A stretch of 64,000 nt of DNA from Cymbomonas tetramitiformis (taxonomy: Eukaryota; Chlorophyta; Pyramimonadophyceae; Pyramimonadales; Pyramimonadaceae): NCBI GenBank assembly GCA_001247695.2, contig LGRX02035459.1, positions 62,001 to 126,000 on the forward strand, given 5' to 3'. Of the stretch, positions 21,399-59,675 are shown piece by piece (positions within the stretch are counted from its first letter, which is position 1; the number at the start of each line of letters is the position of its first letter). Position numbers and translations under genes: made by a program. Under the pieces are notes generated by a model. It did not search any database. It was not told where the DNA came from and saw only the letters and a program-made list of their open reading frames with translations.

Positions 21399-21412
21399 CC
21401 CTACAAATTTAG
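21399..21412 (+). repeat. TE1 left terminal inverted repeat
   Basis: CCCTACAAATTTAG, preceded by the target duplication ACG at 21396-21398. Identical to the complement of 33530-33543. Confidence 0.93.
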
Positions 21413-21423
21413 GAATCGTAGGT

Positions 21424-21560
21424 AGGGCCATGTTTACCTTGTATCTACCTTGTGTCTGGATGGCCAAAAACCACGACCAGACATGGCCATGTTTAGTCAG
21501 TTTTTCCGCGGCGCAACACCACCCAAGTAGGGCCATGTTTGGTCGTGGTTTTTGGCCTTA
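21424..21560. repeat. TE1 left subterminal inverted repeat
   Basis: GGCCAAAAACCACGACCA near 21462 is matched by its complement near 21540, flanking a CATGGCCATG core at 21482. Together with AGTAGGGCCATG words, this is the innermost part of the left end. Confidence 0.7.
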
Positions 21561-21589
21561 CTTACCCCTTACTTACCTTGTACCTACCC

Positions 21590-21975
21590 AATGTCTAACG
21601 CACCATACGTACGCCCGTGAATGCATGAATCACTTAGACATTGGGTAGATACAAGGTAAGTATGGCAATGTCTATACATAAATAAGGGTAAGTAGGGCCC
21701 TACCTATCATGTATCTATACTCAAGTACTGGGTAAGTATGGCCATGTCTATACATAAACAAGGGTAAGTAGGGCCCTACCTATCATGTATCTGTACTCAA
21801 GTACAGGGTAAGTATGGCCATGTCTATACATAAACAAGGGTAAGTAGGGCCCTACCTATCATGTATCCATGCTCAAGTACAGGGTAAGTATGACCATGTT
21901 TATACATAAACAAGGGTAAGTAGGATCCTACCTATCATGTATCCATGCTCAAGTACAGGGTAAGTATGGCAATGT
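21590..21975. repeat. TE1 left subterminal array, 76-bp unit
   Basis: About five copies with a strict 76-bp period (TGTCTATACATAAA at 21669, 21745, 21821, 21897). Each unit holds two GGCC-centred palindromes: GTAGGGCCCTAC and CATGGCCATG or a one-base variant. Each also holds GTAAGT twice, a consensus 5' splice donor. The same unit recurs at about 26505-26650 and 32455-32720. Confidence 0.9.
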
Positions 21976-22022
21976 TTGAATGATTTTTCAATTAAAAATA
22001 TTTACTGAAAGTGTACATTTTT

Positions 22023-24206
22023 CTATTTTTTGCTCCTCTTGCTCCCTTTCCCTGCAGGACTGTCTACTTTTCTCTTATTTTTGCCTTTTGCAGAAGGAGA
22101 AGGAGGCTCTTCCTCCTCGTCCTCCTCCTCCTCCTCATCCTCCTTCTCGGGCGCATGTGCCGTCTCGGGCGCCGTTTCGTCCTCATCCTCCTCGGCATCC
22201 TCCTCATCCTCCGCGGAGGTTCCCGCCGGTTTAGGCACTTTCAGCCCGTCGGGTTTCCCGGAGTGGTAGTACAACAACTCCTTTCCGTCGTCGTACCTTT
22301 GTGTTGCGTGCTCCCATGGCACGCAACACAAGAGGCTCCCCGTAGCGAACCTCCCCTTGAGGAAGTCATCGAGGTGCCTCTTGAGCTCTGCCTTCTCAGG
22401 CACTTTTTCCTCCACCTGTCCGAACAGGTAGAGTAGTGCTTTTTTGACCCGGTTCTGGTGGACCGGGTCGTACAGAGTCCAATGGAACTCCGTGATCTGC
22501 AAGCACACGCGTAAGTTAGTTCGAAGTGTAAACATGGCCGAATATGGCCATGTTTAAGCGGTTTCGTAGGAAAACATTGCAGGTAGGGCCATGTTCGGGT
22601 CTTACCTTGATGCACAGCTGGTCGCTGGGGAGCCCCCCCGCCACCTGGTGCCCAAAGTGCCATGCCGGCTTCTTGGGCACCGTCTCCACCACCACCCCGC
22701 AGAGCAGGGGGGTGTGGACCTGCGGGGTGAGGTCGTCCTTGTACCAAGAGGTGGGAACATCGGGTGTCCCCGCCTCCCACCTCTTCTCCTCATCCTCCAC
22801 CTCGTGGTCCTTGCTAGCCATGAGCAAGGCGTGGTCGCCGACCTTGAGGCGGCCGTGCTCAAGCACCTCCTGTTCGGCCGCCCGCTTTCGGGCTTCGGCC
22901 ACCTTGAGCCCTTGGCGCTTGGGCGCCATGGGCTCCTTGCCCTTGCCCGCCATGGCCTCCTTGCCCTTGGGCTCGGCCTTCTCCTTGCCCTTGGGCTCGG
23001 CCTTCCCCTTGCCCCTGGCCTCCTCCTCCTCCTCCTCCTCCTTGGCGTCGAAAAGATCCCGCAGGATTGCCTTCCGATCCTCTGCTGCCACGACCAACAC
23101 TAAGTTAGTTTCAAAGTACTGGCAAGTTATATCTATGCAAACATGGCCATGTTTGCACAGGTAGTGTGTGAACATGGCCTTACTTGCATAGTACTTCTGT
23201 ACTAAACGGTGCGAACAGGGCCTTACTTGCACATAAGAAACGAAAAACTTATCACAAAACTTATTTCAAGCAAAGAACGCACCTTCCGTTGGGACGTCGC
23301 CGTTCAGGGTCAAACCCGCAGCCTCCACCCCGGCCTTGATCTCGGCCGTTGTGGGTTGGGCTTTCTTTTGGGAAAACACCTCCACGTTGGCGGTGGTGTA
23401 TGCATGCCCGGGTATGTTGCATACCCAGACATGCACCTCCCCCGCCTTGAGGCGCCACCTCCCCCACTTGTGGCGGCGCCTCAAATTTTGCATCAAGGTG
23501 GACAACTTCATATGCTGGTTGTCCCCCCTTGAGCCCAACGTGGCGGTGAGGGGCATTAGTTCCGCCATTCGACGGCGGAACCTATCCCTAGCCAGGGTCT
23601 GTTTATCCAGACCCTGGAAGGGATTTACATGCCCCTTCACCACCATATCGTCTGTGAAATCAAACACAAACACCCCACACGTTAGCATCTGAACTTCCTG
23701 CGACAGGACAACATAAAACACAAGCAGGACACTACCCAAACATTGCCCTATTTACGCAGTGTACACCCCCTACCTACAACTGGAAGGTGGGCGAACAGGG
23801 CTGTGTTCGTGCAATGTTCTAACACCCTAGCAAGTGTTTTTCAAGCAGGATTTCGGCTGGGTTACTCACGGAAGACGTCTCTCCTGTGTTTCGCCGCCTC
23901 CTTCCCCTCCTTTTCTTGCGCTTTCTGAAGATTTTTAACTGAATCCCCTGTGGACTTCACCTTGGCCATCGCAAGGGCGAAGCGGTCAAGCCCACTCCCC
24001 TTCTTGCTTTCGGCCCCCGGATCCGGATCCTCCTCCTCCTTCTCCTCCTCCTCGTCCGTGTCCTCGGAGCCACCGCTCTCGGAGTCGGACGCATTTAAAA
24101 GCGCATACTTGCGCTTGTATTGCCGGTACTTTTCCTTGTCCGCGAGCTTGCCCATTTTCACGCGGGCATGTTTAAATTGGTCGTACGATAACATACCGCT
24201 CGGCAT
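22023..24206 (-). CDS. TE1 second protein (TnpA-like candidate), four exons
   Basis: Exons 24206-23870, 23651-23283, 23081-22606 and 22496-22023 join in phase (1, 1, 0) at GT-AG sites to give about 551 residues. The ATG reads MPSGMLSYDQFKHARVKMG. Exon 1 has an acidic Ser/Asp/Glu tract. Exon 2 is more globular (GRWRLKAGEVHVWVCNIPGH). Exon 3 has Lys/Gly/Glu repeats of the KGKEP type and then VGDHALLMASKDHEV. Exon 4 ends in long Glu/Asp runs and a Lys-rich tail resembling a nuclear signal. In plant CACTA elements the second protein binds subterminal repeats; this gene's position fits that role, but I see no named DNA-binding domain. Each of its three introns contains GGCC-centred motifs. Confidence 0.75.
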
Positions 24207-25206
24207 TTTTCAAATCACTTACGTTTCTAGGGAGGGAGGTGGTGCTTCGCAGGCAGCAGTAACGGTAGCCTTAAAACGGTATCGCTCGCTTTAATAAACC
24301 GTTTTGACTTCCTGCAAGGTAAAGCACCACCTCCCTCCCTATCCGTTACAGTACGCCGCCTGCGTTTCCGTGGATCGATGAGAAGGGGAAGGGAAGCGGG
24401 ATTCGCGGTCACTCGAGGTCAACGCATTTCGTATTCGCATCGGACGCCCCAATTTGAAATTACTTTGGCACTTTCGATCGCCAGGCGTTGGATTCGTCGA
24501 TCAGTCGGATTCGAATCGCGCCGCGCGCATGACCATGCCCCAGGGCAACGCAAGTTTCCGTCGTCTTCCTGTTTTGTTTTTTGTTCTCGCAAGTTGAAGT
24601 TCCACATAATAAAGGCCTTTTTTCCAAAGGCCTTTACAACCTTTCAACAAACCGTTTTCACCATTGTAGTCTGCGCCCAAGCCCCTTCTTTTGAGCTCAA
24701 CTTTGTTTTTCACCAAAATGACCGATTTTTTTGGCACGCCCGCCTGCACCCTAAGGTATGGTCTAGACATGGCCATGTTTGGATCGTTTCCCCATTGGGT
24801 TTTGCATTTGGGGCATTGATTTGGGCTATGTGCGCCGCGGAAGATGTCTACCTTGTGTTCGCGTGAATGCTGTTCGAACCGGGCCATACCAGGGCAATTC
24901 TACTCAGGTACAAGGTAAACATCTTCCGCGGCGCAACACAAGGTGTTTTACCTTGTTTTACTGCCAACATTGCCCAAAAATGGCCAAGTTTGCCACGTGT
25001 TTTTGGACATTGATCAAACATGGTCCGTTTTATGTACGTCTTGGCCCAATGTTGGCAGTAAAACAAGGTAAAACATGTGCTACCAAGGCCGTGTTTCACC
25101 ATCTCGGCTGTTGAAACTGCTTAGATAGGGCCATGTTTACACCATACTTATGATGGTACAGCAGGTTACGTACGTGGGCAAAAGCGGTTTGCAGGCACAA
25201 TAGGCG
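24207..25206. promoter_or_regulatory. TE1 divergent intergenic region with three nested inverted repeats
   Basis: Between the two divergent genes. Arms: AGGGAGGGAGGTGGTGCTT at 24228 with its complement near 24324-24343; CGCGGAAGATG...ACCTTGT near 24836 with its complement near 24922; CCTTGTTTTACTGCCAACATTG at about 24950 with its complement at about 25049. CATGGCCATG also occurs at 24768, and AGGGCCATG at 25128. It probably acts as a bidirectional promoter and transposase-binding centre (inference). Confidence 0.6.
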
Positions 25207-25520
25207 ATGACATCCCGCGCACAGAGATTGGCGCAAGGTGGGATTCCGGAGGAGAGACGGAGGGTCAATCCCGCGAAAAGAGCCACTGTTGCATATCGCT
25301 TGCCAAATTCTCCGGGTGAGGGCGATGGGTTGACGACGCCGCCGCGTGCGGACGATGCCTCCAAGAGGCAACGTGTCCTCGAATGGGATGCCAATCCCAC
25401 GAATGGGTTTATAGATTTAGTTGAGGAACTCTTTTGGGATGGAATCATTCTGACGGAAGAATACGACAATCATCCGGCACGCGCCACCTTCACTGACATT
25501 GAACGCGACGGCATGACCGG
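25207..25520 (+). CDS. Possible first exon of the TE1 transposase gene
   Basis: ATG 25207 opens a 105-residue frame (MTSRAQRLAQGG..., later GFIDLVEELFWDGI), compositionally protein-like and followed by GTAGGG at 25521, a possible donor. I could not find an acceptor that joins it in phase with the acidic exon downstream, because the tandem repeat intervenes. It may be an exon, a separate small ORF or a remnant. Confidence 0.35.
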
Positions 25521-26150
25521 GTAGGGCCCTACCTGCCTTGCTCTCGGGACGAACCCGGGGCGAGCATTGCCCTACCTGCAATGGGAAGGGGCCAAGTATG
25601 GCCGTGTTTTGACGTGTTCGCTGTAGGTCGAACCGAAAAGCACGGAAATTCCTGCCACATGCGACCTTGTGCGCCGGAGGCCCTGGCCAAATTTTTGCTT
25701 TCCCTACCTCGCCTGTGTGATGTTAAACTTTCATTGTGGTTCGTCGACTAAGGGGTGCTGCGGCACGATTACGGTACGGGTAGGGCCCTACCTGCCTTGC
25801 TCTCGGGACGAACCCGGGGCGAGCATTGCCCTACCTGCAATGGGAAGGGGTCAGGTATGGCCATGTTTGGCCGTGTTCGCTGTAGGTCGGACCGAAAAGC
25901 ACGGAAATTCCTGCTACATGCGACCTTGTGCGCCGGAGGCCCTGGCCAAATTTTTGCTTTCCCTACCTCGCCTGTGTGATGTTAAACTTTCATTGTGGTT
26001 CGTCGACTAAGGGGTGCTGCGGCACGATTACGGTACGGGTAGGGCCCTACCTGCCTTGCTCTCGGGACGAACCCGGGGCGAGCATTGCCCTACCTGCAAT
26101 GGGAAGGGGTCAGGTATGGCCATGTTTGGCCGTGTTCGCTGTAGGTCGGA
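25521..26150. repeat. TE1 internal tandem repeat, 259-bp period
   Basis: About 2.4 near-identical copies starting at about 25523, 25782 and 26041 (GTAGGGCCCTACCTGCC...). Each carries GTAGGGCCCTAC and ATGGCCATG palindromes. The near-identity of the copies implies recent amplification. It probably lies in an intron or 5' region of the transposase gene. Confidence 0.88.
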
Positions 26151-26173
26151 CCCCCATGCCGAAGACATTGCAG

Positions 26174-26466
26174 CCACAGCTATTACTTCGCCCCCATGTA
26201 CCCATACACCCAACTCCGAAGCCAACTCCGACCGCCGCGACATGGACTCAGACGACTCCATGCTGCCAGGTCAGCGTTCAAACAAGGACTCGGACGACTC
26301 CTCGTTGCCAGGCTTGCTTTCAAGCACTGACTCCGACAACTCCTCCTTGCCAAGCCAGCGCTCAGACACGGACTCGGACGACTCATCGTTGCCAGACCTG
26401 CATTCAGGCAGTGACTCGGACGATTTCTCGTTGGCAAGCCAACTTTCGGATCCAAGGTGGCATTCC
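26174..26466 (+). CDS. Possible acidic exon with DSDDSSLP repeats
   Basis: An open segment between a CAG at 26171-26173 and possible donors at 26457 or 26467 encodes about five imperfect repeats of D-S-D-D/N-S-S-L-P followed by G/S-x-x-S. Acidic Ser repeats of this kind are common in the N-terminal parts of CACTA transposases. The donor at 26457 is in phase with an acceptor at 26710, so it may join the main transposase gene. The exon start is not proven. Confidence 0.45.
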
Positions 26467-26504
26467 GTAAGCTTGATTGCGTGCTGCATTATGCAAGGAC
26501 ATGT

Positions 26505-26650
26505 TTATACATAAACAAGGGTAAGTAGGGCCTTATCTACCATGTGTCTATACTCAAGTACTGATCAAGCATGGCCATGTGTATACATTAACAAGGGTAA
26601 ATAGGGCCCTACCTATCATGTATCTATGCTCAAGTCCTGATCAGACATGT
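26505..26650. repeat. Internal copies of the TE1 76-bp subterminal unit
   Basis: Two copies (TATACATAAACAAGGGTAAGTAGGGCC at about 26507 and a variant at about 26582) sit inside the element, between the acidic exon and the main transposase exons, the same unit as at both termini. Confidence 0.85.
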
Positions 26651-26738
26651 CCATTGCTGAAACGATGTGGGCATGGCCCTACTCACACATTTCTGATTCT
26701 TTTGCAACAGGCAACGCAATGTCACCATCCATTCCTTC

Positions 26739-29700
26739 ATGCCCCATTCAGGCGAAGAGAAGAAAACGGTGTGCACGCCGCAAGAGTTTTTCGACATGGT
26801 GGCAAATGCGAAGGGCCACCGTTCGAGAATATGGGAGTGCATCGCCGATACACTCTACCTAGAGGACCATCCGGCGAACATCGAGTATGCCGGCCACCGT
26901 TGGGCATTGGAACCTCCCGTCCACCGAAATCTTGCCATGATCAAAGACGCGATTTTGAAAGTGGTGAGGGACGACGACATTTGTATGGCTCCGCCGGACG
27001 AGTTGAATTTGACCAAGTCCGAGCAACCCACTTTGGATGACCACGACTCCATCAAGAGCAAGGATGTCACGAGTTCCGACGACGCCAGCCCCGATGCCGA
27101 TGCCCCCCCCTCCCCACACCCGATGATGCTCTTGGCCTCCGATGCCGACTCTCCGATCTCCGAGGCCGTGGCCCAAGACGATTCCCGTGCCGATGCCACC
27201 ACCTCCGCACACCCGATGATGCTCTTGGCCTCCGATGCCGACTCTCCGATCTCCGAGGCCGTGGCCCAAGACGATTCCCGTGCCCATGACGCAGACACCG
27301 AACCCATCGTCCGCGAGGTAGCCGACGAGGCCATAATGTGTACTCCGCTAAACCCGGCGTTCCCACACCCTATAGCCAGGTATGGTTTCAAACCCGGTGT
27401 AAACATGGCGCTGTTTGTATAGGTTCTTTGGAATACACAAGGTAAGCATGGCCATGTTCGTACGCGGTTTCGTGCAGACGCCGCCGCGGAGGTGTGGAGA
27501 ACGGTCCACGCGCAAGGGACGCGCAAAAGAAGCCATGTGGTTGCAATCGTTGCGTGGAGAACAACATCACCAAGGAAGTGTCAACGAGAACCATCTACAC
27601 ACACAAAAGGCTTTACGGTTGGCATGTACCTCCACAACCGGATCCGGATGCCGTGCTTCCTCTTAGGCCGCCTACCCCACATGATTCTACCGAACCTACT
27701 TTGGAGACGGATGAAGAGATGGATGAATTCGGAGAGAAGGATTGGGGAGGGGGGTCTATAGGAGATGCCGATGGTCGCGGCATATCCCCGATCCCTCCAA
27801 GTTCCCCCTTCCCGTCTGAGCCAGCAGGTGAGAACCTAATGAACATGGCCATACCTGCCTTGTATAGCTTCAGGTAATTGGTGAACATGGCCATGTTTGC
27901 CTAATACCTGCCCAACGTGCTCGTTGCAGTCGCCTCCCCAACTCGGCAAGAACGTGACGACACCGCCTGTTTTCACGTGAGCGTGACCTCCACACGCACG
28001 AACGAGGAGCTCCTCAAAATCGAGTATGAGTGGGAGAAGATGATGTATTTCCTCAACCACATCGAAGGCATTGACTTCGACGAGTACGAAGGGTGGATGA
28101 AACCCGGCAATTTCGACGATATGTATCCGGAGGATGACGTGCACATCTCTCTTCATTGCGGCAACCAGTCATGGGATGTGGCATTTCCTATCGTGGAGTG
28201 CCTTGTGGGAGTGCGATCGCACCCAATGTTCATCCCCCATCGAGATGATGGCATGAGTGGTACCGCACACGAGGCGAATGGCGAGGAGATGGATGTAATC
28301 AACGAGATACTAAAGAGCTTGGAGGAGATGGTAAAGGTGCGACCAGAAAATAACACAACAACCGCGGTGTCGCTTGCTGCTGCTGCACTTTGAGTTAATG
28401 TGGTTTCAGGTGAGGTTTAAGGTGAGGATATGCACTGGCTAATAAGGTACTGGACAGACATGGCCATGTCTTGCCATTTCTAAATGTAAACAAGGCGAAC
28501 ATTGCCATGTTTGCACAGTTACGTGGCAATGTCCGTCCCATTTCTAATTGTGGTGTCAGTTTCGCAGGATGCTTCTGGTAAGGAAAACCATGCCTTCATG
28601 CTCATGCTCGATCTCTTGGAATGGAACTTGGAGCATGGCCTTAGTCAAGGATCCTTTAACGACTTGTTGGAGATACTTCGTCTAAATTTGCCGAAGATGT
28701 TCCCGGAGGGCACTCTACCGAAGAACTACCAAGAGGCCATAGGACATCTATCCATGTATGGCTTGCCTTCTAAGTCGGTGGACATCTGTGTAAATGGATG
28801 TTGCAGATTCGATGGAGAGCACGCAATGTGCCGGACATGCTCGACGTGTGGCGCCGATAGATGGGCCCCGGAGATGCTCGAGAAGCCGTTGGCGAGCCGG
28901 AGAGGAAAGTCCACGTTTCATTATTGGAACCTCCCGGATCTTCTCAAAAGGAATTTTGCGCACCCGGAGCTTTGCGTGGACATGCAAGCGCACGCCCGCC
29001 ATATTCCATGCGACTTGACCAAGGAGGCGATGGGAACTATGTGGGGTAAGTGAAATTTTCCAGTTCCCAATTGTGAAAGGAATGCCCTTTGAAAGCCTAC
29101 TGAACATGGCCATATTTGGGCCCTATCCCTCTGGAAACCTACTGAACATGGCCGTATCCGGGCCCTGTCCTTCTAGAAACCTACTGAACATGGCCATACT
29201 TACCTGTTTATCGCAGACAGTCCAGCATGGAGGCAACGGCGGGAAAGGTACCCCAAGTTCTTCAGCGATCCCCGCAACGTGGTGATCTTAGGATGTGCGG
29301 ATGGCGCCACGGTGTGGAAGGACCTGCGCGGAGTTTTCCCGGTGACGTTTCAATACCTCAATATGCACCCCACCATCCGCGGCAAGTTCGTGAACATGGA
29401 GGTGTTTGGGATATGTAGCGGCTCGAAGCCAAAAAGCACGCAACCTATCTACGAGCTATTTGTGGACCAGCTGCTCGAGTTATGGGATGGCGTGCCGTGC
29501 TACGACATCGTGAAAAAAGAAACCTTCAACTTGAGGTGCATGTTGTTTAAGATGTTGTTTGACATCAAAGGTTTGATGGATGGCGCTTGTCGCAAGGATG
29601 TGGGGGCGTACATGGCTTGCATTGCATGCAACCTGCAAGGTTGGCGATCTAGCATCTTCAAGGGGATGCGGTATACCTTCCGCACGGAAGCCGAGCCTGG

Positions 29701-32395
29701 TAAACAACCTTCTCTGGTATTCCCTTGATGTACTGCACGCAAGCGACAGTTATTGGTTAAGGATGGCCATGCTTTGCTAGTGTTTTTATAGACATGGCCA
29801 TACCCACGTGTAGACATGACCGAATATGGCCATGTTCGGACAGGTTCGATGATGGGTAGGGCAATGTTCACCCTGTTGCATCGCAGGTCCCGCAGAGTTT
29901 CAAAAGAGAACGGATGCCGAGATACGGCACCACGCGGCGAAGCACCAAACGCTTAAGGAAAGCGGACACTTCAGGATGAAGGATCTCGAGACGATGATGA
30001 AAGCTACCGGTATAAAATTTCCTTCGGAATTCTCACGCTTGCCGTATTGGGATGAGGCCAAGGACTACCTCATCGACTTGATGCACTTGATCAAGAATCT
30101 TGGAGAGCACGTCCTTGACGCCGTGATGGGAACTGACTTTGACAAGAAAACGCGAACGTGGGCGAAATCTCAAGGCATTAAACCCACATGGTGGGCAACT
30201 GGTATTTTCCCCTTTCCATAGGCCTGACCCGACGTGAACCCATCCAGCGAAACCTATGTAAACATGGCTGTGTCCAGCCGTTTTGGCTTATGAACATGCT
30301 TGAACATGGCCATACCTAGGCAGTTCTGTCCGGTTTGTTCAAAAGTTTAGCATCCATACGTGAATTATGGTCGGGTCCGACACTTGAGCAGATGCGAATG
30401 GCAACTACACCAAAAGGACATCCCCTTGGCAGATTGTCGACGTGCGCACCGCTACGGGAAGGTGCTTGAAGAGAGCCGAGGAATTCGCGAGAGAGGAAGT
30501 TGGCTTTCCACGGGAATGGGGAGCGGGTCAATGGAAATTGTTGAAACTGTCTTCAGACGGAAACGCAAAGAAGCTAAAAGCCCACGAATATTTGGTGATG
30601 TTCAGAAATGGACTTTTCGCGATCCTCGCGGCATGGCCAAGGGACGATGACTCACCCAATGCACTCGCACGTTTGGTGGGGCAACTTTCAACGATAGTCC
30701 GGGAAATCACGGCCCACGAGATCGATCTGGAGGTGCGGTTCTCTGGTACCTTGCTCTCATGTTCCCTGTCGCGTCACCAAGAATTTACATTTTGTGTGAA
30801 GGCTGAATGCACATGGCGATGCCCACCTAGTTTACAGAGTGAACATGGCCATACTTGACCATTATCCCTTAGGAACATGGTTAGGCATGACCGTACTTGT
30901 CCATGATCTTCTAGGAACATGGTTGGACATGGCCCTACCTATCTATTGTTGATGGTGAACATGGGGATTCAGGAGCTGCCGACACTTGACAAGTACATTA
31001 GAGAGTGGCTCGTCACCATGGAGAGCTCGCGACATGGGACGAGCCCTCACTGGTGGGTCCTCAACACACATCTATTGTGTCACGTGGTAGACCAACTTCG
31101 AGACCTCGGGCCGGTTCGCGAGTATTGGATGTTCGTATTCGAGTCCTTAAATGGCAAAATCGGGAGGTGGGTGAAGAACAATGCCTTCCCGGTGCAGAGC
31201 ATCATGAACGGAATCGGGCGGCAGAAGACCATTCAGTATGTACGAGGGTTACTTATGGCACTTCGCAACGAAGTTCCACGGCCACTTGTCGTCCCCGCTC
31301 TTGTACGGGACCGCGTTGTTGTGGCCGATAAAGGGAAGAAGCACACATTGACCGAAGGCGAGCGAGCGTGCATCGATGTTTGGATGCGCACCAATGTGGG
31401 GCATTACCGACGGTTGCAAGACCTGCTTGATGCATATCATGAGGACTTACGAACAAGGTAAGGCCTCATCTAATCAATGCCTGAATGAAACACTAAGTAA
31501 ACATGGCCATGTTCGTGCATGATTTCCATCCACGTTTCCACAAACTAATCACTCAGGTGATTCGCAGGGTCAAGAGAGGCGGTCGTGGCTTGAAGAAAGG
31601 ACTGCAAAGGAGGATGACATGCCGTCTAGCCGCCGACGAAGATCCGACTCCTTGGCTCGGACGACCATTCACTCCCGACGAAATCGAGTTGTTGCGTGGT
31701 TGCCCCACAAAGTGCCGCAGGTTTAACAAGGTACAAGTGGGTAACATGCGAAACCGCATCGCTGCTGTGGACAAGAAGTTCAAAACTGTCCAGTGTTATT
31801 TCCGCTCTTTTTTCATCGAACGCGTGCGTGGAACAAGTGAAGAGGAAGAGACTGATAGGTGCGTGCCTTTCTGCTTATGATTAATGAGTAAACATGGCCA
31901 CGTTCTAGCCCTACCTAGGAATGTATTGTGTAAACAGGGCCATGTCCACCTAGTTTCTTTAGATACCCTGGGTAAACATGGCCATGTTCAGACGATTCCT
32001 GTAGTTTTTGCAAACCAATTCCTCAATTATACATGCGTGCCAGGCTCGCCCGTCTTGAAGACGTCTATGCCATCAAGCTTGGTGGAGTCGAGTACATATT
32101 TGTCAAGGCGGCTTGGCTGCAGAAGCCGACAAAAGCAAAGATCGCCATGTATAACCGGATGAACTCCATAGTTGGCCCGGACAGCGTCACTGGCTGTTTC
32201 TTTTGCGATGACCCCGAGAACCCTGACACCGTCTTCGATACCAGAGAGCCATTCATGCTCGCAGATCAGATCGCGTCGCAAGTAGTAATTGTGAAGCATC
32301 CTTGCATGCAAACTGCGGTGGTTCTTGACCCTCGAGCAGATTTCTTCGAGCAGAATGTCCAGGATGAAAATCCTAGCGAGGACGAGCTTGCTTAG
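26739..32395 (+). CDS. TNP2-type CACTA transposase, at least ten exons
   Basis: Exons (approximate first start) 26739-27379, 27478-27827, 27930-28330, 28568-29045, 29217-29699, 29887-30201, 30392-30732, 30973-31457, 31568-31858 and 32044-32395 join in phase at every junction (phases 2,1,0,1,1,1,0,2,2) using GT-AG sites. Exon 2 has a CGCNRC knuckle-like motif. The TNP2 core (Transposase_21-like) spans 28568-30201: CRTCSTCGADRW, DPRNVVILGCADGATVWKD, LFVDQLLELWDGVPCYD and LIDLMHLIKNLGEHVLD. Exons at 30392-31457 match DUF4218 (WWVLNTHLLCHVVDQL, FESLNGKIGRWVKNN). The last exon resembles DUF4216 (EPFMLADQIASQVVIVKHP). It acts as the element's transposase. No stop or frameshift was seen. Translation may start further upstream. 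Confidence 0.88.
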
Positions 32396-32454
32396 TACTT
32401 AGGCCTGCAGTACGACATGGCATTTGTGTAGTGTAAATAGATAGCATCAGTTTG

Positions 32455-32720
32455 TGTATATACATAAACAAGGGTAAGTATGGCCCTACCTATCATGTAT
32501 CTATACCCAAGTACAGGGTAAGTATGGCCATGTTTATACATAAACAAGGGTAAGTAGGGCCCTACCTATCATGTATCTATACTCAAGCACTAGTCAGGTA
32601 AGGCCATGTTTATACATAAACAAGGGTATGTAGGGCCCTACCTATCATGTATCTATACTCAAGTACAAGGTAAATATGGCCATGTCTATACATAAACAAG
32701 GGTAAGTAGGGCCTTAATTT
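32455..32720. repeat. TE1 right subterminal array, 76-bp unit
   Basis: About three and a half copies in the same plus-strand orientation as the left array, starting just after the transposase stop, with the same GTAGGGCCCTAC and ATGGCCATG palindromes. Confidence 0.9.
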
Positions 32721-32726
32721 AGTAAG

Positions 32727-33300
32727 GACTATTTTACTCATTTAGTAAGGACTAAATAAGCGTAATAGCCCCAAAAAAACAGATTCCAAAAATATTTTTT
32801 TCCAATGTTTTCAAGTACAGCCCAGGTACAGCCCAGGTACAGGGTAGGTATTGCCCCCTACTTACCCCTTACCTACCCAATGCCCATACTGACCTAACTT
32901 TGAGGTGCTGTAACAGGAAGCGTAAAATGTTTTTTCAGTTAAATCTTTGGAGACTGTCCATAGTAAGGACTAAATAAGCGTAATAGCCCCCAAAAAACAG
33001 ATTCCAAAAATATTTTTTTCCAATGTTTTCAAGTACAAGTACAGCCCAGGTACAGCCCAGGTACAGGGTAGGTATTGCCCCCTACTTACCCCTTACCTAC
33101 CCAATGCCCATACTGACCTAACTTTGAGGTGCTGTAACAGGAAGTGTAAAATGTTTTTTCAGTTAAATCTTTGGAGACTGTCCATAGTAAGGACTAAATA
33201 AGCGTAATAGCCCAAAAAAACAGATTCCAAAAATATTTTTTTCCAATGTTTTCAAGTACAGCCCAGGTACAGCCCCAAGTACAGGGCAGGTACCGAGTAG
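32727..33300. repeat. TE1 right array, about 222-bp unit
   Basis: About two and a half copies (TAGTAAGGACTAAATAAGCG at about 32742, 32962 and 33187) containing A-runs, GTACAGCCCAGGTACAG words and ACTTACCCCTTACC. This unit is not present at the left end, so the two ends are asymmetric. Confidence 0.85.
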
Positions 33301-33529
33301 CACAACTTTGAGGCCTCAAAAAGTGAGGTTACCAAAGCCATTCCACCCAAAACTTCGCTCCATATGTCTTACATCGACCCAAACCATCGACATCAACAAT
33401 AAAAAACAAACTATCGGAAACTTCATTTCACCCGATTTTGGCTGGTTTTGCCATTTTACTGCCGACATTGCCCAAGTAGGGCCCTACTTGGCTCGAAACA
33501 CAAGGTAAACACAAGGTAAACACAAGGTT

Positions 33530-33543
33530 CTAAATTTGTAGGG
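33530..33543 (-). repeat. TE1 right terminal inverted repeat
   Basis: CTAAATTTGTAGGG, the complement of the left end. A perfect palindrome CAAGTAGGGCCCTACTTG lies about 55 bp inside it (33473-33490). The target duplication ACG follows at 33544-33546. Confidence 0.93.
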
Positions 33544-34775
33544 ACGGCCCACCACCCCGTCCATTCTCACAATCGATTACCTCCCCAACAGTGCTCGTCA
33601 CGCAGCAGCAATTATATTAACCCCCAGGCACGACAGTACAACCCATCACGACAACAGTACCTCAGCACGTTTACCGCAGCCGCTGCCCGCAGCCTATCAG
33701 CCGCGATTTAGCCCTTAACCCCACATTCAGTTATTCAGCCACACGACAGCCACGTCATCGCGTATTCTGACAGCAACCCAAACCCGATGTCTGTTCGTCC
33801 ATAATGCATTTTCCCAGAGAGCTCCCACTTTCTCAGAAACCTTCAACCCAGAACGAACAGGATGACACCCCCACCGGATGTCACACGAAGTCCGCCGGAT
33901 AAGCGAAGCCCATCTGTGGTCACGCGCTAATCAGGCGGCATCACAGGCAACACATCATCCCAGCCGCGCCACGTGGACGAGGCCCCCGGCTCTCTGCACC
34001 AGATCGCAGATGGCACCCACGACAGCAAGTAGAACGACGCGAAACACCGCGAAACGCTCCCGAGCGCGGGAACGCTCGCCGACCCGCGACTGACGCATCA
34101 CCTGTGACGTCGAGCCACAACAAGTAACTCTGTTTGAAATCTGACATCTCAAAAGTCACCAACGGGATGTAGCATCCAGCAACGATTCAAACGCAGAAGC
34201 CAGGCCACCGATTGGAGAAGACGAAACATCGCGAACCGAAAGGTCGCCAAAAACCTCAAGGCGGCTGTAGGAAATTAGCCTCTTAACAGGAAAGTAGAGA
34301 CTTTTCAGTCAGTCTGCTGAGAACTATCTGAACCTTTCAAAATCATATTGGTCGTGCGTAAGTTTGTAATATTGGATATTTCCCGTTGCCGAATTCACAG
34401 CAACCTTGCGAATCTAAACGCACCAAGCACCGTCTTGAATCAGTCAGGGACAGCCCTCTCGGCACAAGTTTCACACGAACGCATATCGCAGCTTTCGCGG
34501 ATACGAATTCACGTTCGCGCCCGCTCCGCTATAACGTATATAAGTAAATTCATACCCGCGCAGTTGTGGGTCAATTCGCACTCTTAAAGGCCAAAGCTCT
34601 ACGCAGTCAAGGTGAGTTCGAGACGCCGGGCGTTATGTGACTTTTTAGCATGACTTCTCGCAAGAAACGGGCAGACGTGCGGGACCACGCTGAGCCTCCC
34701 AACGAGAAGCCTGGAGTACGGTTGAATTCACCCCGCAGCAAAGTACAGGCGCGCAAAATTGTATCGCGAATTCAT

Positions 34776-34804
34776 GTGTATGTGTGTGTGTGTGTGTGTG
34801 TGTG
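34776..34804. repeat. Microsatellite (GT)n
   Basis: About 14 GT dinucleotides. Confidence 0.9.
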
Positions 34805-36239: not shown

Positions 36240-36283
36240 ATGACAGTATGACAGTATGACGATATGACAGTATGACATTACAG
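36240..36283. repeat. Short tandem repeat (ATGACAGT)n
   Basis: Four to five imperfect octamers of the TATGACAG type, the last degenerate. Confidence 0.75.
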
Positions 36284-38107
36284 GAGTATGGCATCATGGT
36301 ATGACCGTCATCGGGTTATTCACGAGGCATCCGAATCTAAGGTGTTACATTGTATAAGATCGGGATATGATCGGGTCAGAATTGGTTGGTGCATCGTGAC
36401 ATGATGTCGGGTAGCCCAGTCGGTATGACCAGGTTGCCGAGCTACGGAGTTAAATGGAGCACTTGAGAAGTGAACGGCCTTCAGAACTCAGATCGTAACG
36501 AACTTTAACACCTAATTAATCTGGCCCTGCCCCAGTGATATAATAAAAAAAGAATATTGTATGTACCTTTACATGTTCACACAAAAATAACTTCTGAGTA
36601 TATTTTTCTAGTGCCCCGGCACAGTTCTTCACAATTGGCACGTATCTCTTGCCCATTGAAAGTGATTGTGGTTGACAGGAAGATGCCGATTCCGGTTCCC
36701 TTGACAATGCCGATGCCGATGGAAACTTGCCGGACCCGGAAGCCGTTCAAGAAGAGCTCGACGAATGACTCGACCATGTCGACCCGGAACTTGCTAGAAA
36801 GGTGACGGAAGAAATCGAAGGAAAATTAAAGTCGTTGGAGAACTTGGCTGATATGGAGGTAACGTTCGCTGTTTGAATATTTTGCTCAGAATTGAAAATT
36901 GTATATAGTGTGATGTCTTTTGTACCCGGAACACGCCCGGAAGTTACGAGGGACGTCTTTCGTGCGTCTTCCTGACGCCTTCCGTTTTATCCTTCGATGA
37001 CAGACCGCAGCGACGAGCTCCGAGGATACCCTACTCGACTTATTGGAGTGGAATCTGGATGGCAATATGACTCAAGAATCCTTTGGGCAACTGCTGCACA
37101 TTTTGAAAACTAATCACCCGGACGTATTTTCTAATTTGCCCGATTCCTCTAAACAAAGCATTGCTCGGTTTAAGGTCATGGATATCCCACTCCTAGTGGT
37201 GGACCTTTGCCCGCATGGGTGCGTGATGTTCGAAAAACAATTCGCGGACTTTGACCACTGTCCAAGGTGCGGGGCATGCCGTTGGGAGGGAGGTAAGGAT
37301 CGGTGCGGTGCGGGGAATGCCGAGGGTGCGGACGACACCCGGAATGCCGAAGCCACCCCGAGTGCAAAGCGGGGGAAGGCGAAGTGCCAATTCTATCATT
37401 GGCATTCCAAGGATTTACTTCAAGCAATTTACAGCCATCCCGGCGTTGCTGGGCTCATGCGTTCGCACGCCACGCGGGAAAAGTCTGAGGAAGGCATTCT
37501 GGAAGACATTCCCGGTGAGTAACACATTGATAGAGCATATCCTGCATTGCCCCGAAGACGTACAGAAGGTGCACATAATGCCTTCCGTACATCTTCCGTA
37601 TGACTTCCTGATTCCTACTACTTGAATGAATTTAAGTTGTATTTATGTATCTTGCAGATGGATCTGAGTGGAAGGCGAAGCAAGCTACATATCCCGACTT
37701 CTTCAAGGACCCTCGCAACGTCATCCACATGCTTTGCGCCGACGGGGCCACCGTTTGGAAGGACAAGTCGGGGGTTTTCCCTATCTACTTTCAAGTGTTG
37801 AACTTGCCACCGGAAATCCGCAAGAAGTTTGTGAACCTTGAGTTGTGGGGAATGATGGCGGGGAAGCCGAAGAACACCACCAGGTAGCCCCTTATTTGTG
37901 TCGCACGGGGTATTTTATTTGTCGTGTCGCAAAAGATCCGTTTATATTAACGACGCTTCGCAGCTTTTTCAGAAATATGCTGTTTTTCATTTCGTTTCCC
38001 TTAAAGGAGCGAAACAGGTTTCCTGGAAAAAAGTGACATCAACAGGCCACACCGCAGGAGCTGTCCCTCAAAAATTATGCCGTTGGAAATTTTTCGAAAA
38101 TTTTCTG

Positions 38108-38455
38108 CCCATGTCAGCAGTCCTACCCCGGATTGTGTCGAGCGCTCGCGCTTTACCGGCCAATCATGATACGATAGCATCTCAGCAGTCCTACCCCGGA
38201 TTCTCTCGACCGATCGTTCGTAACCGACAGCGAGAGACACGTTTAACAATTCAAAATTATACCACGAAGATATGCGGAATTTCCAATTATGAATTTGTCG
38301 CAACACTTCTCTAACAGGTCTACCGATCTCAGGAGTCCTACCCAGGATTCTCTCGATCGATCGTTAGTAACCGACAACGCGAGACACGGGTAACAATTCC
38401 ATATTTTACCCCGAAGATATGCGGAATTTCCAATTATATATTATTTACGCATCTC
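38108..38455. repeat. Direct repeats inside the Mutator-like element
   Basis: A block beginning CAGCAGTCCTACCCCGGATT and continuing to GATATGCGGAATTTCCAATTAT occurs at about 38180-38290 and again, slightly changed, at about 38328-38440; its first 30 bp also occur at about 38115. Confidence 0.8.
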
Positions 38456-38739
38456 GCAATTCAAGATCATCTCACCACTCCTACAAGTATCGGGAGACAC
38501 GCGGCGCGGCGCCGACACAAATGGATATGATATGATATGATATTCTGGCAAACGCCTCATTCTTCCTCAAGGTCTCATCCTGCGCCTACCTGCAGTCTCA
38601 GCGGCTTGTATTTTTGTTTGACTAATGTTTTTTTACGCGCTACTGTTCTTTGTCGATATTTCATATTGACCATGTTTTCGTGTGCATGCGTGGAACCCGG
38701 CGGGGGGGGCTTCCTGCGATGTTCCTACATGAGCCGCAT

Positions 38740-39310
38740 CCCGCCAGCAGCCGATTCTAGTTTCCTGCGATATAGGGATATTTGGAGACCGTCGGGCGTC
38801 TTTACATTCCGCCTGACGGTTTGGGCTCAATTCCCAGAATTCTTCTTTCCTGAGCAGTGATTTACTTTTGCAGGTTGCCGTGTATGCTGTGCCTTTTTTG
38901 AAGCCGCCAGCAATGCTGCTGGCGGCATCCGTGTTTCCCACATGCCCTTCTAAATTTATGGGATGCTCGGAGACCGGCGGGTTTCTTTACAGCCCGGCGG
39001 TTTGGGTTCGATTCCCAACATCTTTACTGACCAGCGTTTCGTATTTTTGCAGGTTGCCGTGCTGACGCTGTCCTTCTTCTGAAGCCGCCAGCAACGTTGC
39101 TGGCGGCGTTGACTTCCGTTGCCCTGCATTGTTTACGCAGGTTGATTTCTTGTAGTAATTTCAGACCTCCTGTTGAACTGGTCCTAGTCTGCTGTCAAAA
39201 TTAAGATATCTGGTGAGTAACCTTCCACCCGAGGACGAAGTACCGGCTGTCGGTATATCGGGTTTGATTCCCAATGTGCTGACAGATTCCGTGTTCGTGT
39301 GTTGCAGGCG
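38740..39310 (+). repeat. Repeated units with T-arm-like segment and GC hairpin
   Basis: Two full units and one partial unit. Each has a TGGG-loop-CCCA arm resembling a tRNA T-arm (38821-38836, 39001-39019, about 39260-39274; the second contains GGTTCGATTCC, a perfect pol III B-box). The two full units then carry a GGTTGCCGTG block and a strong hairpin GCCGCCAGCA...TGCTGGCGGC (38903-38926 and 39084-39107). No full tRNA fold was found. They may be tRNA-derived SINE remnants. Confidence 0.45.
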
Positions 39311-42300
39311 GGGAACGGCATAGATTTCGATATTTTTACCTGTTGCTAACTTTGTAGGCCAGTTTCACCTGTTGCCTTGGACTGGTGAACCCTTTAAGTA
39401 GAAGCCTAGTCTAGAACGAATGTGTAAAACAATATTAACTGTGTCATATTTTAAGTTGTGATTTGTGAATGCCGTGAATGTTTCTTGAATATGCTTGCTT
39501 GCTATACCTGTTTGCCTGTGCTAGCATGCATATATTTGTATAGCATCATCCAACTAACGATTTAATAGAGTGCGTTGTATATCATTCGCGTGGTGCTATT
39601 TATTTAATAAGTGTGTATTTCAAGTCATTATCGCGGTACTATTCGTTTGTGTTCCCCATGGCTTATTTTCATTTTCGGAAATTTTCTGTGAATTTTCACG
39701 ACAGAAATGAGCGTGGTCCTCATGATTGTCGCACCTGCGACAGACATGAGCCCCCAGATCGTTTCTGTCGCACGGTATAATTCCAGTTTGTCTTGCGACA
39801 CGACAAATAAAATACCCGGTGCGACAAATTTGAAGTGCTACCACACCACCATCCTCTACGAGAAGTTGTTAGACGAGCTTTTGGAACTTTGGGAAGTTGG
39901 GTTTCCATGTTGGGACTCCTTCACGGACGACGTGTTCCAATGCCGGGCGATGCTTCTTGCCGCCGTGTTTGACTATATAGGGCTCGTCGATGCGATGAAC
40001 ATTATGGGCGTGGGCAGCTTCTGTGCGTGTGCAAAATGTTTGATCCGGGGGAAGGGGAAATGCCCGCATCTAAATACGATGTTGTACAAGTTTTGCGAGC
40101 AAGATCCGCCAGGTCCGTTTTCCCCAAAGACATGCCGAATGTATTCACAACATCTTCCGGGTGTCATCTGAGCGTCTTCCTGTTATTGTACGCAGGGCCC
40201 GCCGTACCAAAGACCGACGAGTTCATTCGACGCGCGGGCCAACGACACGTCTTGCTTAGCACGTGTAAGAATGCGGCCAATCTTCAGGAAGTGTTGGAGG
40301 AGGAAATCGGCGAAACCGGTGTGAAGTTCCCATCAGCACTAGCTCGTTTGCCGTATTTCGATCTTTCCAAGAATGTCATCCTTGACGGCATGCATCAACT
40401 CCGAAACCTTGGGCTATATGTCCATGAGGCACTCGAGGGCATGGGGTTCGACTTTACGCCGGGTGTAAGAGAGCACGCTCGCGCGAACGATATGCATCCC
40501 ACGTGGTGGAAAACGACAAGGGACGACAAAGGTGATGCAGTCAAAACCCGACCACTAGCTAGGAAGGTGCCTGGAAGATGCCCCAAGTATCCTCTACGTG
40601 TCTTCGGGATGTCTTCCTGTTACCACTAACTTTCGCGCCCGGGAAAATGACAGGCGTGGAACGATATTCAATGGCAATTTGTCCGTTTCAAATCCCATCG
40701 CGGGCAAAAGGGTCGAAATCTTTGAGGTCGCTAGAGACCGCCTTGAAGTTCATGACGGAGCCCTCGTTGGGAAGGTCATGGGGGCAAGGCCATAAGAAGA
40801 TGTTGCGTCCGAACGGCACGAACACCGGACCGAAGACGCTCAAGTGTCACGAGGCGTTGAAAATGCTACAAGCGGGCATCATCATGAGCGTGCTAGCGTC
40901 TTGGGATAGAGACGAGGGCTACTTGAAAAACATGCTTGAAGACTTGATCGGGCAGTTGACGGTCATAACGAGAGAGCTCACTTCGGAGCTTGTAGACTGT
41001 AAGGTACGGAAGACACATGGAAGACATCCCGAATACGTTCCGAGTACATTCCACACGTCTTCCTTAATTACCTTTTATTTGGTGATTTTGCAGGATATTC
41101 CTAAGCTTCAAAATCTGGTGGATGAGTTCTTCAAGTCACTCGAGCGCGATGGCTCACCTGACTGGCTGGTCATCAACACGCATTTGCTTTCCCACTTCCC
41201 CGACCAACTCCTCATATATGGCACAATACGGGGGACATGGATGTACGTGTTCGAATCATTCAACGGGAAGATTCGAAGGTGGGTGAAGAACAATGCATAT
41301 CCGGTTCAGAGTGTTATGCAAGGCTTCGGGCGGTACCGGATGGTACATGTGGTGCGAGGGTTAATCTTGGAACTTCGTCGCCGGCGGGAGGCAACCACCA
41401 ATCCCACCCGTCCACCCGTGCTCCCGTTCTTGGCCACCGCACCGTTGAGGGCGCCGAACACCGTGATTTTGGGAACACAAGGCAAGCGCCATGTACTCTC
41501 CCGCGCTGAAACGAAAGTGCTGGAGTTGTGGATGCATGGCAACGTGCCCCAATACCGCAAGTTGAAGGACTATTTCGACGACTACGTCGCCTACTGCAAG
41601 AGGTAAGTAAGAAATGAAACCCATAAGGTGCCTGGAAGACGTTTCATATATCTTCTAGGCATCTTCCACACGTCTTCGGTAAATATATGTCCTGACACTG
41701 TGCACGTATACATTCGCAGGGAAAACCATATGGTTCGGAGACGTATTGGCGCACGAGCCGGAGCGTCTCGCCTGATGGATGTGCCGCTGCATATGCACGG
41801 TAGCGACCCCAAGGTCTGGCTGGGGAGACCATTCACGGAGAATGAAGCGGCACTCGTCGAAGGGCCTCCTCAAGTGTGTCAATCTTTCGGCTCGGTCGTG
41901 GTTCGGGGAGTATGCTATCGCACGGCAGCTCAGGACAAGACGAAGAAAACTTGTCAACGTTACTTCCGAGCCTTTTTCTCTGGAGAAAACATCAAAGGCG
42001 AGGAAATCGAGACTGACCGGTGCGTCCGTGCATTACGTTTTGGTGAATGTGCGCAGAATATGTACCGAATGTCTTCTGTGTGTCTTCTCGACATCTTCGG
42101 GGATTCTTACTATAGAGTATAATTGTGGCTCCACCTCGCAGGTACGCCATGGTAGATAGTATCTACAAGGTCGACTTGGCCGCGAAAGAGTACATTCTTG
42201 TGAAGGGAAAGTGGTTCCCTGAATTCAACCAAGCGACGACAAAACGGTTTGCCAAGCTAAACTCGAAGTACGGGCCGGACAATACCGCAAAGGTGGTGTA

Positions 42301-42639
42301 CACATACGACCCGGATGATCCCGAGACACCTTGGGACACTACTGATCCATTCATCCTGGCGGCTCAAATTGAGCACCAAGTTGTAATCAAGAAACATCCT
42401 GTGATGAAGACGGCGGTGGTATTTGATTTAAAGGCTGACTTTTTCGAGTGCATCGACGATGATGGTTCACGACCGAAAGGTGCAAGACGCAAGAGGCGAT
42501 CATGATAATACGCCGGGCATCGTACTTAGTGGTCTGTATGTTGAATAGATGCAATCGTACATGTATGTGTAGATAGACCTATCAATTAACTTAGCCGTAT
42601 ATTATGTATCATAGCAACAGAGCATGATGACAACCCTGA

Positions 42640-43060
42640 AGCTGTTAGGAAGATACCTGGAATGTCTTCCGCATGTCTTCCGTGCGCCTTCTGAATGTCT
42701 TCTGTGATTACGCGATGAGTGTACGTGTGGTATGAAGTAGCTATGTGGCCAAATTGCATAATCATCACATATGTGTCGATAACACATGTCAGAATGTATT
42801 CTGGTCAAGAAGACATTCAGAACACCTTCCGTGTACCTTCCGAGAAGACTGTCCTTTGTATGTCTTCCGGGAAGATTTCTTCCGAAATCCGGAAGGCATT
42901 CCGCATATCTTCGGTACGTCTTCCCCGAAGAGTGTCTTCTGGTTTCCAGAAGACGTTTCCACCCCGAAGACGTCTTCTGGAAACCAGAAGACATCATGTC
43001 TACGAAGACGTCTAGAAGACGTTCAGAAGACGTCTTCTAGACGTCTTCTGATTTTCCCAG
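42640..43060. repeat. TE2 right subterminal region: dense GAAGAC/GTCTTC motifs
   Basis: Over 20 copies of GAAGAC, GTCTTC or one-base variants in both orientations, tightening towards the end into overlapping palindromes such as AGAAGACGTCTTCT at about 43025. Serves as the presumptive transposase or accessory-protein binding region (inference from CACTA biology). Confidence 0.85.
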
Positions 43061-43069
43061 AATGTAGGG

Positions 43070-48981: not shown

Positions 48982-48989
48982 CTTGATCC

Positions 48990-59618: not shown

Positions 59619-59675
59619 GACCTCATCCTGCTCCGCGATGTTGGCTTCCCAGCCCGGCTCCCATTGCCTCGAGGA

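What the first reader, a model, noticed from the sequence alone, without database searches (positions are those of the whole stretch)
21399..43069. Introns of two CACTA families carry each family's own terminal-repeat motif
In TE1 all 12 introns I could place with phase-consistent GT-AG junctions (three in the minus-strand gene, nine in the transposase) contain GGCC-centred motifs such as CATGGCCATG, the same words that form the subterminal arrays. In TE2 all seven introns contain GAAGAC/GTCTTC, as does its right subterminal region, and none that I saw contains the TE1 motif. Yet the introns are homologous: the aligned exons have the same phases (1,1,1,0,2,2). So the intronic motif appears to have changed in step with the terminal motif while intron positions stayed. 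This suggests selection for motif-binding sites throughout the element (coating, silencing escape, splicing control) or conversion from terminal arrays into introns. CACTA subterminal binding sites are known; their co-evolution with introns is, to my knowledge, not described.
Basis: partly seen in the sequence, partly recalled or inferred. Interest (0 to 1): 0.9.

Follow-up and report, generated by a model that had tools for sequence, protein, structure and literature searches.

The report
Transposon introns as protein docking arrays
Two related jumping genes of a green alga carry in nearly every intron an ordered array of the same short DNA word that marks their own ends, and the word differs between them, which suggests that the introns serve as landing sites for a protein that recognises its own element.

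Summary
TE1 (21399-33545) and TE2 (up to 43068) are CACTA-type (Transposase_21) elements, very probably of Cymbomonas tetramitiformis. TE1 introns hold 45 ATGGCC/GGCCAT (shuffle mean 1.9) in 15 of 16 introns; all 7 TE2 introns hold GAAGAC/GTCTTC (12; shuffle mean 0.45). Exons are at background; neither motif occurs in the other's introns. One TE1 intron (23652-23869) has no exact GGCC, so 'all' fails by one. Seven introns are homologous (phases 0,1,1,1,0,2,2).
New here: all 7 TE2 introns carry one ~54-bp composite, five sites on an 11-bp lattice, same orientation; TE1 intronic sites lie near multiples of 10.5 bp; half-sites share RYRT before different cores (GGCC, CTTC). Long copies of the ends explain one intron only. 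RNA folding is not consistent.
Best reading: helically phased docking arrays for a DNA-binding protein, probably element-encoded, that also binds the ends, likely for anti-silencing. Arabidopsis VANDAL/VANC is a close published precedent with motif arrays in introns, upstream regions and ends, so the principle is known; CACTA, alga and one phased composite per intron are the new variant. Two families, one copy each; function untested.

The parts
21399..33545 (.). TE1, CACTA-type element: 14-bp TIR CCCTACAAATTTAG, 3-bp target duplication ACG
   Evidence: (ends printed)
21650..21975 (.). TE1 left subterminal array, 76-bp tandem repeats with GGCC palindromes
32455..32713 (.). TE1 right subterminal array, 76-bp repeats
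22023..24206 (-). TE1 second gene, 552 aa, acidic and lysine-rich, no Pfam match; candidate binding protein
22497..22605 (-). TE1 second-gene intron M3 with sites
23085..23282 (-). TE1 second-gene intron M2 with sites
23652..23869 (-). TE1 second-gene intron M1, no exact GGCC (the exception)
25521..26144 (+). tentative 5' introns I1, I1b, I1c (25521-25626, 25780-25885, 26039-26144) in a 259-bp tandem repeat
26146..32395 (+). TE1 transposase coding region, Transposase_21 (DUF4218 below cut-off)
26457..26710 (+). TE1 intron I2, holds copies of the subterminal array (139 bp, 88%)
27380..27477 (+). TE1 intron I3
27828..27929 (+). TE1 intron I4, two palindromes 42 bp apart
28337..28567 (+). TE1 intron I5 (homologue of TE2 i1); alternative donor 28331
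29046..29216 (+). TE1 intron I6 (homologue of i2), 42-bp tandem repeat with sites
29700..29886 (+). TE1 intron I7 (homologue of i3)
30202..30388 (+). TE1 intron I8 (homologue of i4)
30733..30972 (+). TE1 intron I9 (homologue of i5), 42-bp repeat
31458..31567 (+). TE1 intron I10 (homologue of i6); donor GTAAGGCC overlaps a half-site
31859..32043 (+). TE1 intron I11 (homologue of i7), three palindromes 42 bp apart
36679..42505 (+). TE2 transposase gene remnant, interrupted by an insert at about 37888-39835; in-frame stop in the first piece 36679-36858
36924..36988 (+). TE2 composite in intron i1 (36859-37003)
37549..37613 (+). TE2 composite in intron i2 (37515-37657)
40121..40185 (+). TE2 composite in intron i3 (40113-40195)
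40558..40622 (+). TE2 composite in intron i4 (40532-40653)
41004..41068 (+). TE2 composite in intron i5 (41004-41093)
41619..41683 (+). TE2 composite in intron i6 (41603-41719)
42040..42104 (+). TE2 composite in intron i7 (42020-42141)
42644..42708 (+). TE2 composite downstream of the stop codon
42781..43068 (.). TE2 right subterminal array of GAAGAC/GTCTTC; right end ...GTAGGG

Best explanation
Each element marks its ends and its introns with docking arrays for one sequence-specific DNA-binding protein, probably encoded by the element itself (in TE1 most likely the 552-aa second gene). Sites are half-sites RYRT followed by a family-specific core, GGCC in TE1 (palindromic pairs) and CTTC(C) in TE2 (tandem lattice). 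Intronic arrays are set to the helical repeat, so bound subunits line up on one face and can assemble cooperatively. The ends are bound for transposition; the introns are short stretches, mostly 0.4-0.7 kb apart along the genes, where sites can accumulate without harming the protein. Binding there most likely keeps the element's genes open, that is, counters silencing in the manner of Arabidopsis VANC. When the protein's core specificity changed, ends and introns had to change with it. Shown: sites, enrichment, phasing, family specificity, homologous intron positions. Inferred: a protein binds them, the element encodes it, the outcome is anti-silencing.
For: Family-specific enrichment in ends and introns but not exons. 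TE2: the composite is found in each left-out intron at the predicted place, scores 38.9-47.3 against a highest shuffle score of 6.7 (300 shuffles each) and a highest TE2-exon score of 0.2 over 9 exon pieces; an unsupervised search finds the same alignment, 42.7 bits against 21.1 +/- 0.7 in 20 shuffles. Same-strand distances between near-GTCTTC words (one mismatch allowed): 11 (14 pairs) and 22 (7 pairs). TE1: 15 site spacings from 7 introns (I1, I2, I6, I9 left out for tandem or end-like copies) are 10,31,31,32,41,41,42,42,42,43,43,51,63,74,84; mean cosine 0.91 at 10.5 bp, null 0.21 +/- 0.17, p <= 0.001; all unique introns 0.76, p <= 0.001; the 11 consecutive spacings alone 0.92. RYR before the core: 60 of 68 TE1 intron half-sites (TE1 exons 5 of 62, flanks 67 of 416), 24 of 25 TE2 intron sites (TE2 exons 9 of 50, flanks 64 of 486). 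TE2 sites kept, spacers not. Precedents: TNPA of Spm reactivates a methylated promoter (as stated in PMC1636069, passages); VANC21 signal in introns, intergenic and terminal regions (PMC5735166, passages).
Against: No binding, expression or methylation data. The second protein has no Pfam or convincing PDB match and its two partial models were poor, so no DNA-binding domain was shown. No homologue of it was found outside TE1 in the window. TE1 end spacings do not follow 10.5 bp (mean cosine 0.05 left, 0.39 right); their repeated 32/44/76 unit fits about 10.9 bp better (0.96 right), but that is tandem copies of one unit. All 7 TE2 composites have the same orientation relative to transcription, which DNA binding does not require. 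5 of 11 introns folded as RNA have z of -2 or lower. One TE1 intron lacks exact sites. Exon pieces also exceeded their own mononucleotide shuffles in the unsupervised search, though far less (25.1 against highest 22.8). The shared RYRT pattern was noticed after the fact. Some deposited gene models of TE1 relatives splice differently. Two families, one copy each.
Confidence: 0.55

Rival explanations
1. RNA-level role: the intronic motifs act in the transcript, as splicing enhancers or as hairpins that bring splice sites together.
For: TE2 composites all have the same sense orientation and an inverted layout that can pair; 5 of 11 introns folded have z of -2 or lower, down to -3.2.
Against: In the 11 introns folded (7 of 7 TE2, 4 of 16 TE1) z goes up to +0.45 and structures differ; helical spacing and the presence of the same words in the ends point to double-stranded DNA. 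No covariation count was made.
Confidence: 0.12
2. Neutral spread: the words are copies of the terminal arrays, or local tandem duplications, carried into introns by conversion or slippage, without selection.
For: Intron I2 contains up to 139 bp of the subterminal array at 88% identity; I6, I9 and I1 show 42-bp and 259-bp tandem repeats.
Against: Other TE1 introns match the ends over 17-26 bp or not at all at E <= 1e-4; in TE2 cores are 91% and spacers 42% identical among introns; phasing survives removal of the duplicated introns.
Confidence: 0.13
3. The sites are bound by host proteins (silencing, transcription or replication factors), and the two families exploit, or are marked by, different host factors.
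For: No second gene of TE2 was found in the window; a host factor would explain use in introns and ends alike.
Against: Half-site densities in the outer flanks (42.3 kb, apparently mostly other transposons) are low, 0.54 per kb each; sharing with the ends of the same element, and the CACTA and VANDAL precedents, favour an element-encoded protein. Host genes could not be examined.
Confidence: 0.12
4. Introner-like origin: the ancestral element gained its introns as insertions of a segment that carried the binding composite, always in sense orientation.
For: One composite per TE2 intron, all in one orientation; in intron i3 the composite is 65% of the intron; the TE1 end repeat carries GGTAAGT.
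Against: Intron positions are shared by elements about 40% identical in protein, so the introns predate at least one of the two motifs; target duplications or terminal repeats at the introns were not tested.
Confidence: 0.07

Closest known systems
VANDAL elements and VANC anti-silencing proteins, Arabidopsis (Mutator superfamily)
   Same: Family-specific short motifs in arrays in introns, upstream and terminal non-coding regions; related families carry different motifs; a second element-encoded gene (PMC5735166, passages, section 9). The TE1 second protein also has lysine-rich peptide repeats that vary in number between copies.
   Different: CACTA-type transposase, not Mutator; no Pfam match in the second protein (VANC has DUF1985 and DUF287 by the paper); intronic sites set on the helical repeat with one composite in every TE2 intron; green alga; no methylation data.
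En/Spm and other plant CACTA elements with TNPA-type subterminal binding
   Same: Transposase_21, subterminal repeat arrays that diverge between related families, a second putative DNA-binding product (soybean Tgmt*, PMC2613891, passages; Spm TNPA, PMC1636069, passages).
   Different: The second gene is separate and on the opposite strand; motif arrays also fill the introns; TIR begins CCCTAC rather than CACTA.
Introners (intron-generating transposons; known to me partly from recall, PMC9860276 one passage)
   Same: A link between DNA transposons and introns; repeated sequence shared by many introns.
   Different: Here introns lie within the transposon's own genes, at positions conserved between diverged families, and share binding sites rather than whole sequence.

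Membership tests
CACTA (En/Spm) superfamily | Transposase_21 (tnp2) domain | tested here: met
   PF02992 above cut-off in TE1 (3.8e-14) and TE2 (2.9e-07)
CACTA (En/Spm) superfamily | TIR beginning CACTA | tested here: not met
   TE1 and the TE2 right end begin CCCTAC; a CCC core is reported for animal relatives (PMC1636069, passages). Described as CACTA-type only
CACTA (En/Spm) superfamily | 3-bp target site duplication | tested here: met
   TE1: ACG on both sides; TE2 not testable, left end not found
CACTA (En/Spm) superfamily | subterminal repeat arrays | tested here: met
   TE1 both ends, TE2 right end
VANDAL/VANC | Mutator-type transposase | tested here: not met
   only Transposase_21 and a sub-threshold DUF4218 found in the transposase parts scanned
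VANDAL/VANC | VANC protein domains (DUF1985, DUF287) | tested here: not met
   no Pfam family at E <= 0.05 in the TE1 second protein
VANDAL/VANC | family-specific motif in introns and ends | tested here: met
VANDAL/VANC | binding by the element's own protein and loss of methylation | not testable with these tools
   needs EMSA/DAP-seq and methylation data
Introners | target duplications or TIRs at intron borders | not tested
   no count made

The most novel reading that the evidence does not exclude
The introns of these elements are kept as docking stations: each holds a helically phased array for the element's own binding protein, and a change of the protein's core specificity (between RYRT-GGCC and RYRT-CTTC) was followed by replacement of the core in the ends and in every shared intron, so that the presence, length and orientation of the introns are under selection for DNA binding rather than for splicing.
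Probability: 0.3. Interest if true: 0.85.

Novelty: new variant of a known kind. Interest (0 to 1): 0.63.

Why it matters
It suggests that sequence-specific marking of a transposon's own introns, documented in the papers seen here for Arabidopsis VANDALs, arose also in a distant transposon superfamily and lineage. The shared RYRT pattern with different cores, and seven homologous introns that differ in step with the ends, make the question of how a binding protein and many scattered targets change specificity directly testable in an alga whose assembly is reported to hold about 52,000 annotated DNA-transposon pieces (PMC10675990, passages).

Tried and rejected
Searches for other copies as DNA gave nothing: viral contigs with TE1 exon 10, the alignment A1, TE1 exon 7 and one end-repeat pattern; genome contigs twice. 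By their descriptions these hold viral and prokaryote sequence.

Structure of the second protein: two partial models, mean pLDDT 39 and 42, too poor for a fold search; none was run. Pfam and PDB sequence searches gave nothing convincing (best PDB row E = 0.87).

Read-through tails of metagenomic fragments: in 5 of 6 TE1-like tails looked at (P0001, P0002, P0003, P0027, P0028; P0034 stops too soon) a His-Gly-Pro compatible with CATGGCCC is kept, but codons are unknown and P0001, P0003 and P0027 are close to TE1 (95, 96 and 98%), so this counts little. The tail of P0019 was tried by eye for the TE2 lattice and did not fit. Tails of other fragments were not read at DNA level.

RNA hairpin hypothesis: folds inconsistent; no covariation count was made. 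Conversion from the ends: long copies in I2 only.
Full report
What is there. The window holds two CACTA-type transposons. TE1 spans 21399-33545, with 14-bp inverted ends (CCCTACAAATTTAG) and a 3-bp ACG duplication. It has a transposase on the plus strand, open from 26146 to the stop at 32395 through ten GT-AG introns, and a second gene on the minus strand, 552 aa with three introns. TE2 ends at 43068; its left end was not found. Its transposase gene is broken: an insert of about 1.95 kb with 34-bp inverted repeats sits at about 37888-39835, and the first coding piece has an in-frame stop. Both transposases match Transposase_21, and DUF4218 below the curated cut-off, and are about 40% identical. 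The host is very probably Cymbomonas tetramitiformis: CYMTET_13918 is 95.7% identical to TE2 over 346 aa, and CYMTET_26073 85% identical to the TE1 second protein over 165 aa.

Are the introns right? No transcript data were available. The TE1 frame stays open through ten introns, and seven introns have the same position and phase in TE2 (0,1,1,1,0,2,2; read). Deposited Cymbomonas gene models of other copies agree in part. P0015 makes the same joins at i5 and i6, and P0016 at i5. Against this, P0015 does not make the i7 join; P0008 runs from TE1 exon 10 to exon 12; and the five models P0029-P0032 and P0035 leave out most of the second exon of the TE1 second gene (read by eye). The three most 5' TE1 introns are tentative, because none of four ATGs tried gave an open frame through them.

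The count. ATGGCC/GGCCAT: 45 in 2608 bp of TE1 introns, 6 in 6144 bp of TE1 exons; mean of 1000 dinucleotide shuffles 1.9, highest 8. It is in 15 of 16 introns, or 12 of 13 without the tentative three; intron 23652-23869 has none. Palindromic sites count twice in this; GGCC counted once is 40 against 31. GAAGAC/GTCTTC: 12 in 822 bp of TE2 introns, 4 in 3056 bp of TE2 exons; shuffle mean 0.45, highest 4; 7 of 7 introns. Neither word occurs in the other family's introns. Words taken from the ends alone give the same picture. The half-site RYRTGGCC has 17.3 per kb in TE1 introns, 0.33 in TE1 exons and 0.54 in the outer flanks; RYRTCTTC has 21.9 per kb in TE2 introns, 1.3 in TE2 exons and 0.54 in the flanks. 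The stretch 24207-25520 between the two TE1 genes has 3.0 RYRTGGCC per kb, so the introns are richer than this internal stretch, which may include a first exon.

The order in TE2. Same-strand distances between near-GTCTTC words in the introns are 11 (14 pairs) and 22 (7 pairs); the match rate at a lag of 11 bp is 0.395 against 0.252 (highest 0.314) in 1000 mononucleotide shuffles, and the right end behaves alike (0.407). Every intron carries one composite: two GAA-type sites at offsets 0 and 11, then three inverted TTC-type sites at 26, 37 and 48. A matrix built from six introns finds the seventh at the expected place each time, scoring 38.9-47.3, while shuffles of the same intron reach at most 6.7 and TE2 exons at most 0.2. 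I had set the registers by eye; an unsupervised search recovers the same alignment (42.7 bits against 21.1 +/- 0.7 in 20 mononucleotide shuffles). The control there, pieces of 7 of the 9 TE2 exons, gave 25.1 bits against a highest shuffle of 22.8, so exons also exceed that simple null, but far less. An eighth copy lies at 42644-42708, after the stop codon; the 30 best separated places in the whole window all lie within TE2. All seven intronic copies run in the sense direction; because the composite is nearly symmetrical, weaker reverse hits appear beside them. Core trinucleotides are 91% identical between introns, whole sites 73%, spacers 42%.

The order in TE1. The sites are GGCC palindromes. 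Leaving out the introns that hold tandem or end-like copies (I1 and its copies, I2, I6, I9), 7 of the other 10 introns give 15 pair distances: 10, 31, 31, 32, 41, 41, 42, 42, 42, 43, 43, 51, 63, 74 and 84, near multiples of 10.5 (mean cosine 0.91; random placement 0.21 +/- 0.17, p <= 0.001; all unique introns 0.76, p <= 0.001). The 11 consecutive spacings alone give 0.92. The TE1 ends do not follow 10.5 bp (0.05 left, 0.39 right); their repeated 32/44/76 unit fits about 10.9 bp (0.96 right), but consists of tandem copies of one unit.

A shared pattern. In TE1 introns 60 of 68 GGCC half-sites are preceded by purine-pyrimidine-purine at positions -4 to -2, with T next to the core in 43 of 68; in TE1 exons 5 of 62, in the flanks 67 of 416, in the ends 17 of 20 and 15 of 20. 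In TE2 introns 24 of 25 CTTC are preceded in the same way; in TE2 exons 9 of 50, in the flanks 64 of 486, in the right end 23 of 28; CTTC in TE1 introns 1 of 10 (I1b and I1c left out). So the two words look like RYRT-GGCC and RYRT-CTTC. I found this after looking at the data, and short degenerate patterns agree by chance fairly easily, so it is a lead, not proof, that related proteins read both.

Origin of the intronic sites. One intron, 26457-26710, contains up to 139 bp of the subterminal array at 88% identity. Of the others, I1b, I1c, I3, I6, I7 and I10 match the ends over 17-26 bp at E <= 1e-4, and the rest not at all. Copying from the ends therefore happens but does not explain the rest. 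Local duplication has also acted (42-bp repeats in I6 and I9, a 259-bp repeat at I1).

Mechanism. Spacing on the DNA helix, sites in both orientations, and identity with the end motifs speak for a protein on double-stranded DNA. RNA folding of 11 introns (7 of 7 TE2, 4 of 16 TE1) gives z from -3.2 to +0.45, with 5 of 11 at -2 or lower, and structures that differ, so a common RNA structure is not supported but an RNA role is not excluded; the single orientation of the TE2 composites is unexplained. The best candidate for the binder in TE1 is the second gene, whose product carries lysine-rich repeats that vary between copies; no DNA-binding domain could be shown. Intron midpoints are 0.4-0.7 kb apart in 17 of 21 cases (insert length subtracted for TE2), so bound arrays would cover the transcribed body at intervals. 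Anti-silencing is inferred by analogy.

What is known. For Arabidopsis VANDAL elements, VANC21 binds a nine-base motif; stronger signals lie in non-coding regions such as introns, intergenic and terminal regions, the arrays evolve by tandem repeats in introns and upstream regions, and VANC6 has other motifs (PMC5735166: passages, section 9; PMC10398659: passages). Spm TNPA reactivates a methylated promoter and represses an unmethylated one (as stated in PMC1636069, passages). Soybean CACTA families differ in subterminal motif, and the authors think binding proteins differ likewise (PMC2613891, passages). I found no paper on family-specific or helically phased sites in CACTA introns; the searches were made, in an open-licence library only, judged from listings apart from the papers named here and PMC12730594 (passages). 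The introner literature was searched once and one paper checked for passages. The Cymbomonas assembly paper (PMC10675990, passages) does not mention CACTA by name.

Limits. Two families and one copy each; the only independent change of motif is the TE1/TE2 contrast; the whole-genome test could not be run; no wet data.

Noticed in passing
about 37888-39835: An insert of about 1.95 kb with 34-bp inverted repeats (97% identical) interrupts a TE2 exon; it has internal direct repeats of 112 and about 160 bp.
   Followed up: partly
54237-59675 and 4514-7789, minus strand: Two retrotransposon polyprotein stretches with integrase and a PHD finger; the first also has reverse transcriptase and a partial match to C-5 cytosine DNA methylase (2.2e-09) between RNase H and integrase.
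   Followed up: no
25518-26152: A 259-bp unit (intron plus putative exon) repeated 2.5 times, so an intron with its sites seems to have been duplicated together with neighbouring sequence.
   Followed up: partly
21650-21975 and 32455-32713: The TE1 76-bp end repeat contains GGTAAGT, a splice-donor-like word, next to the half-site; in introns I1 and I10 the donor itself overlaps a half-site.
   Followed up: no
46596-49201: Three similar units about 1.07 kb apart, with near-identical open frames of 165, 165 and 153 residues.
   Followed up: no
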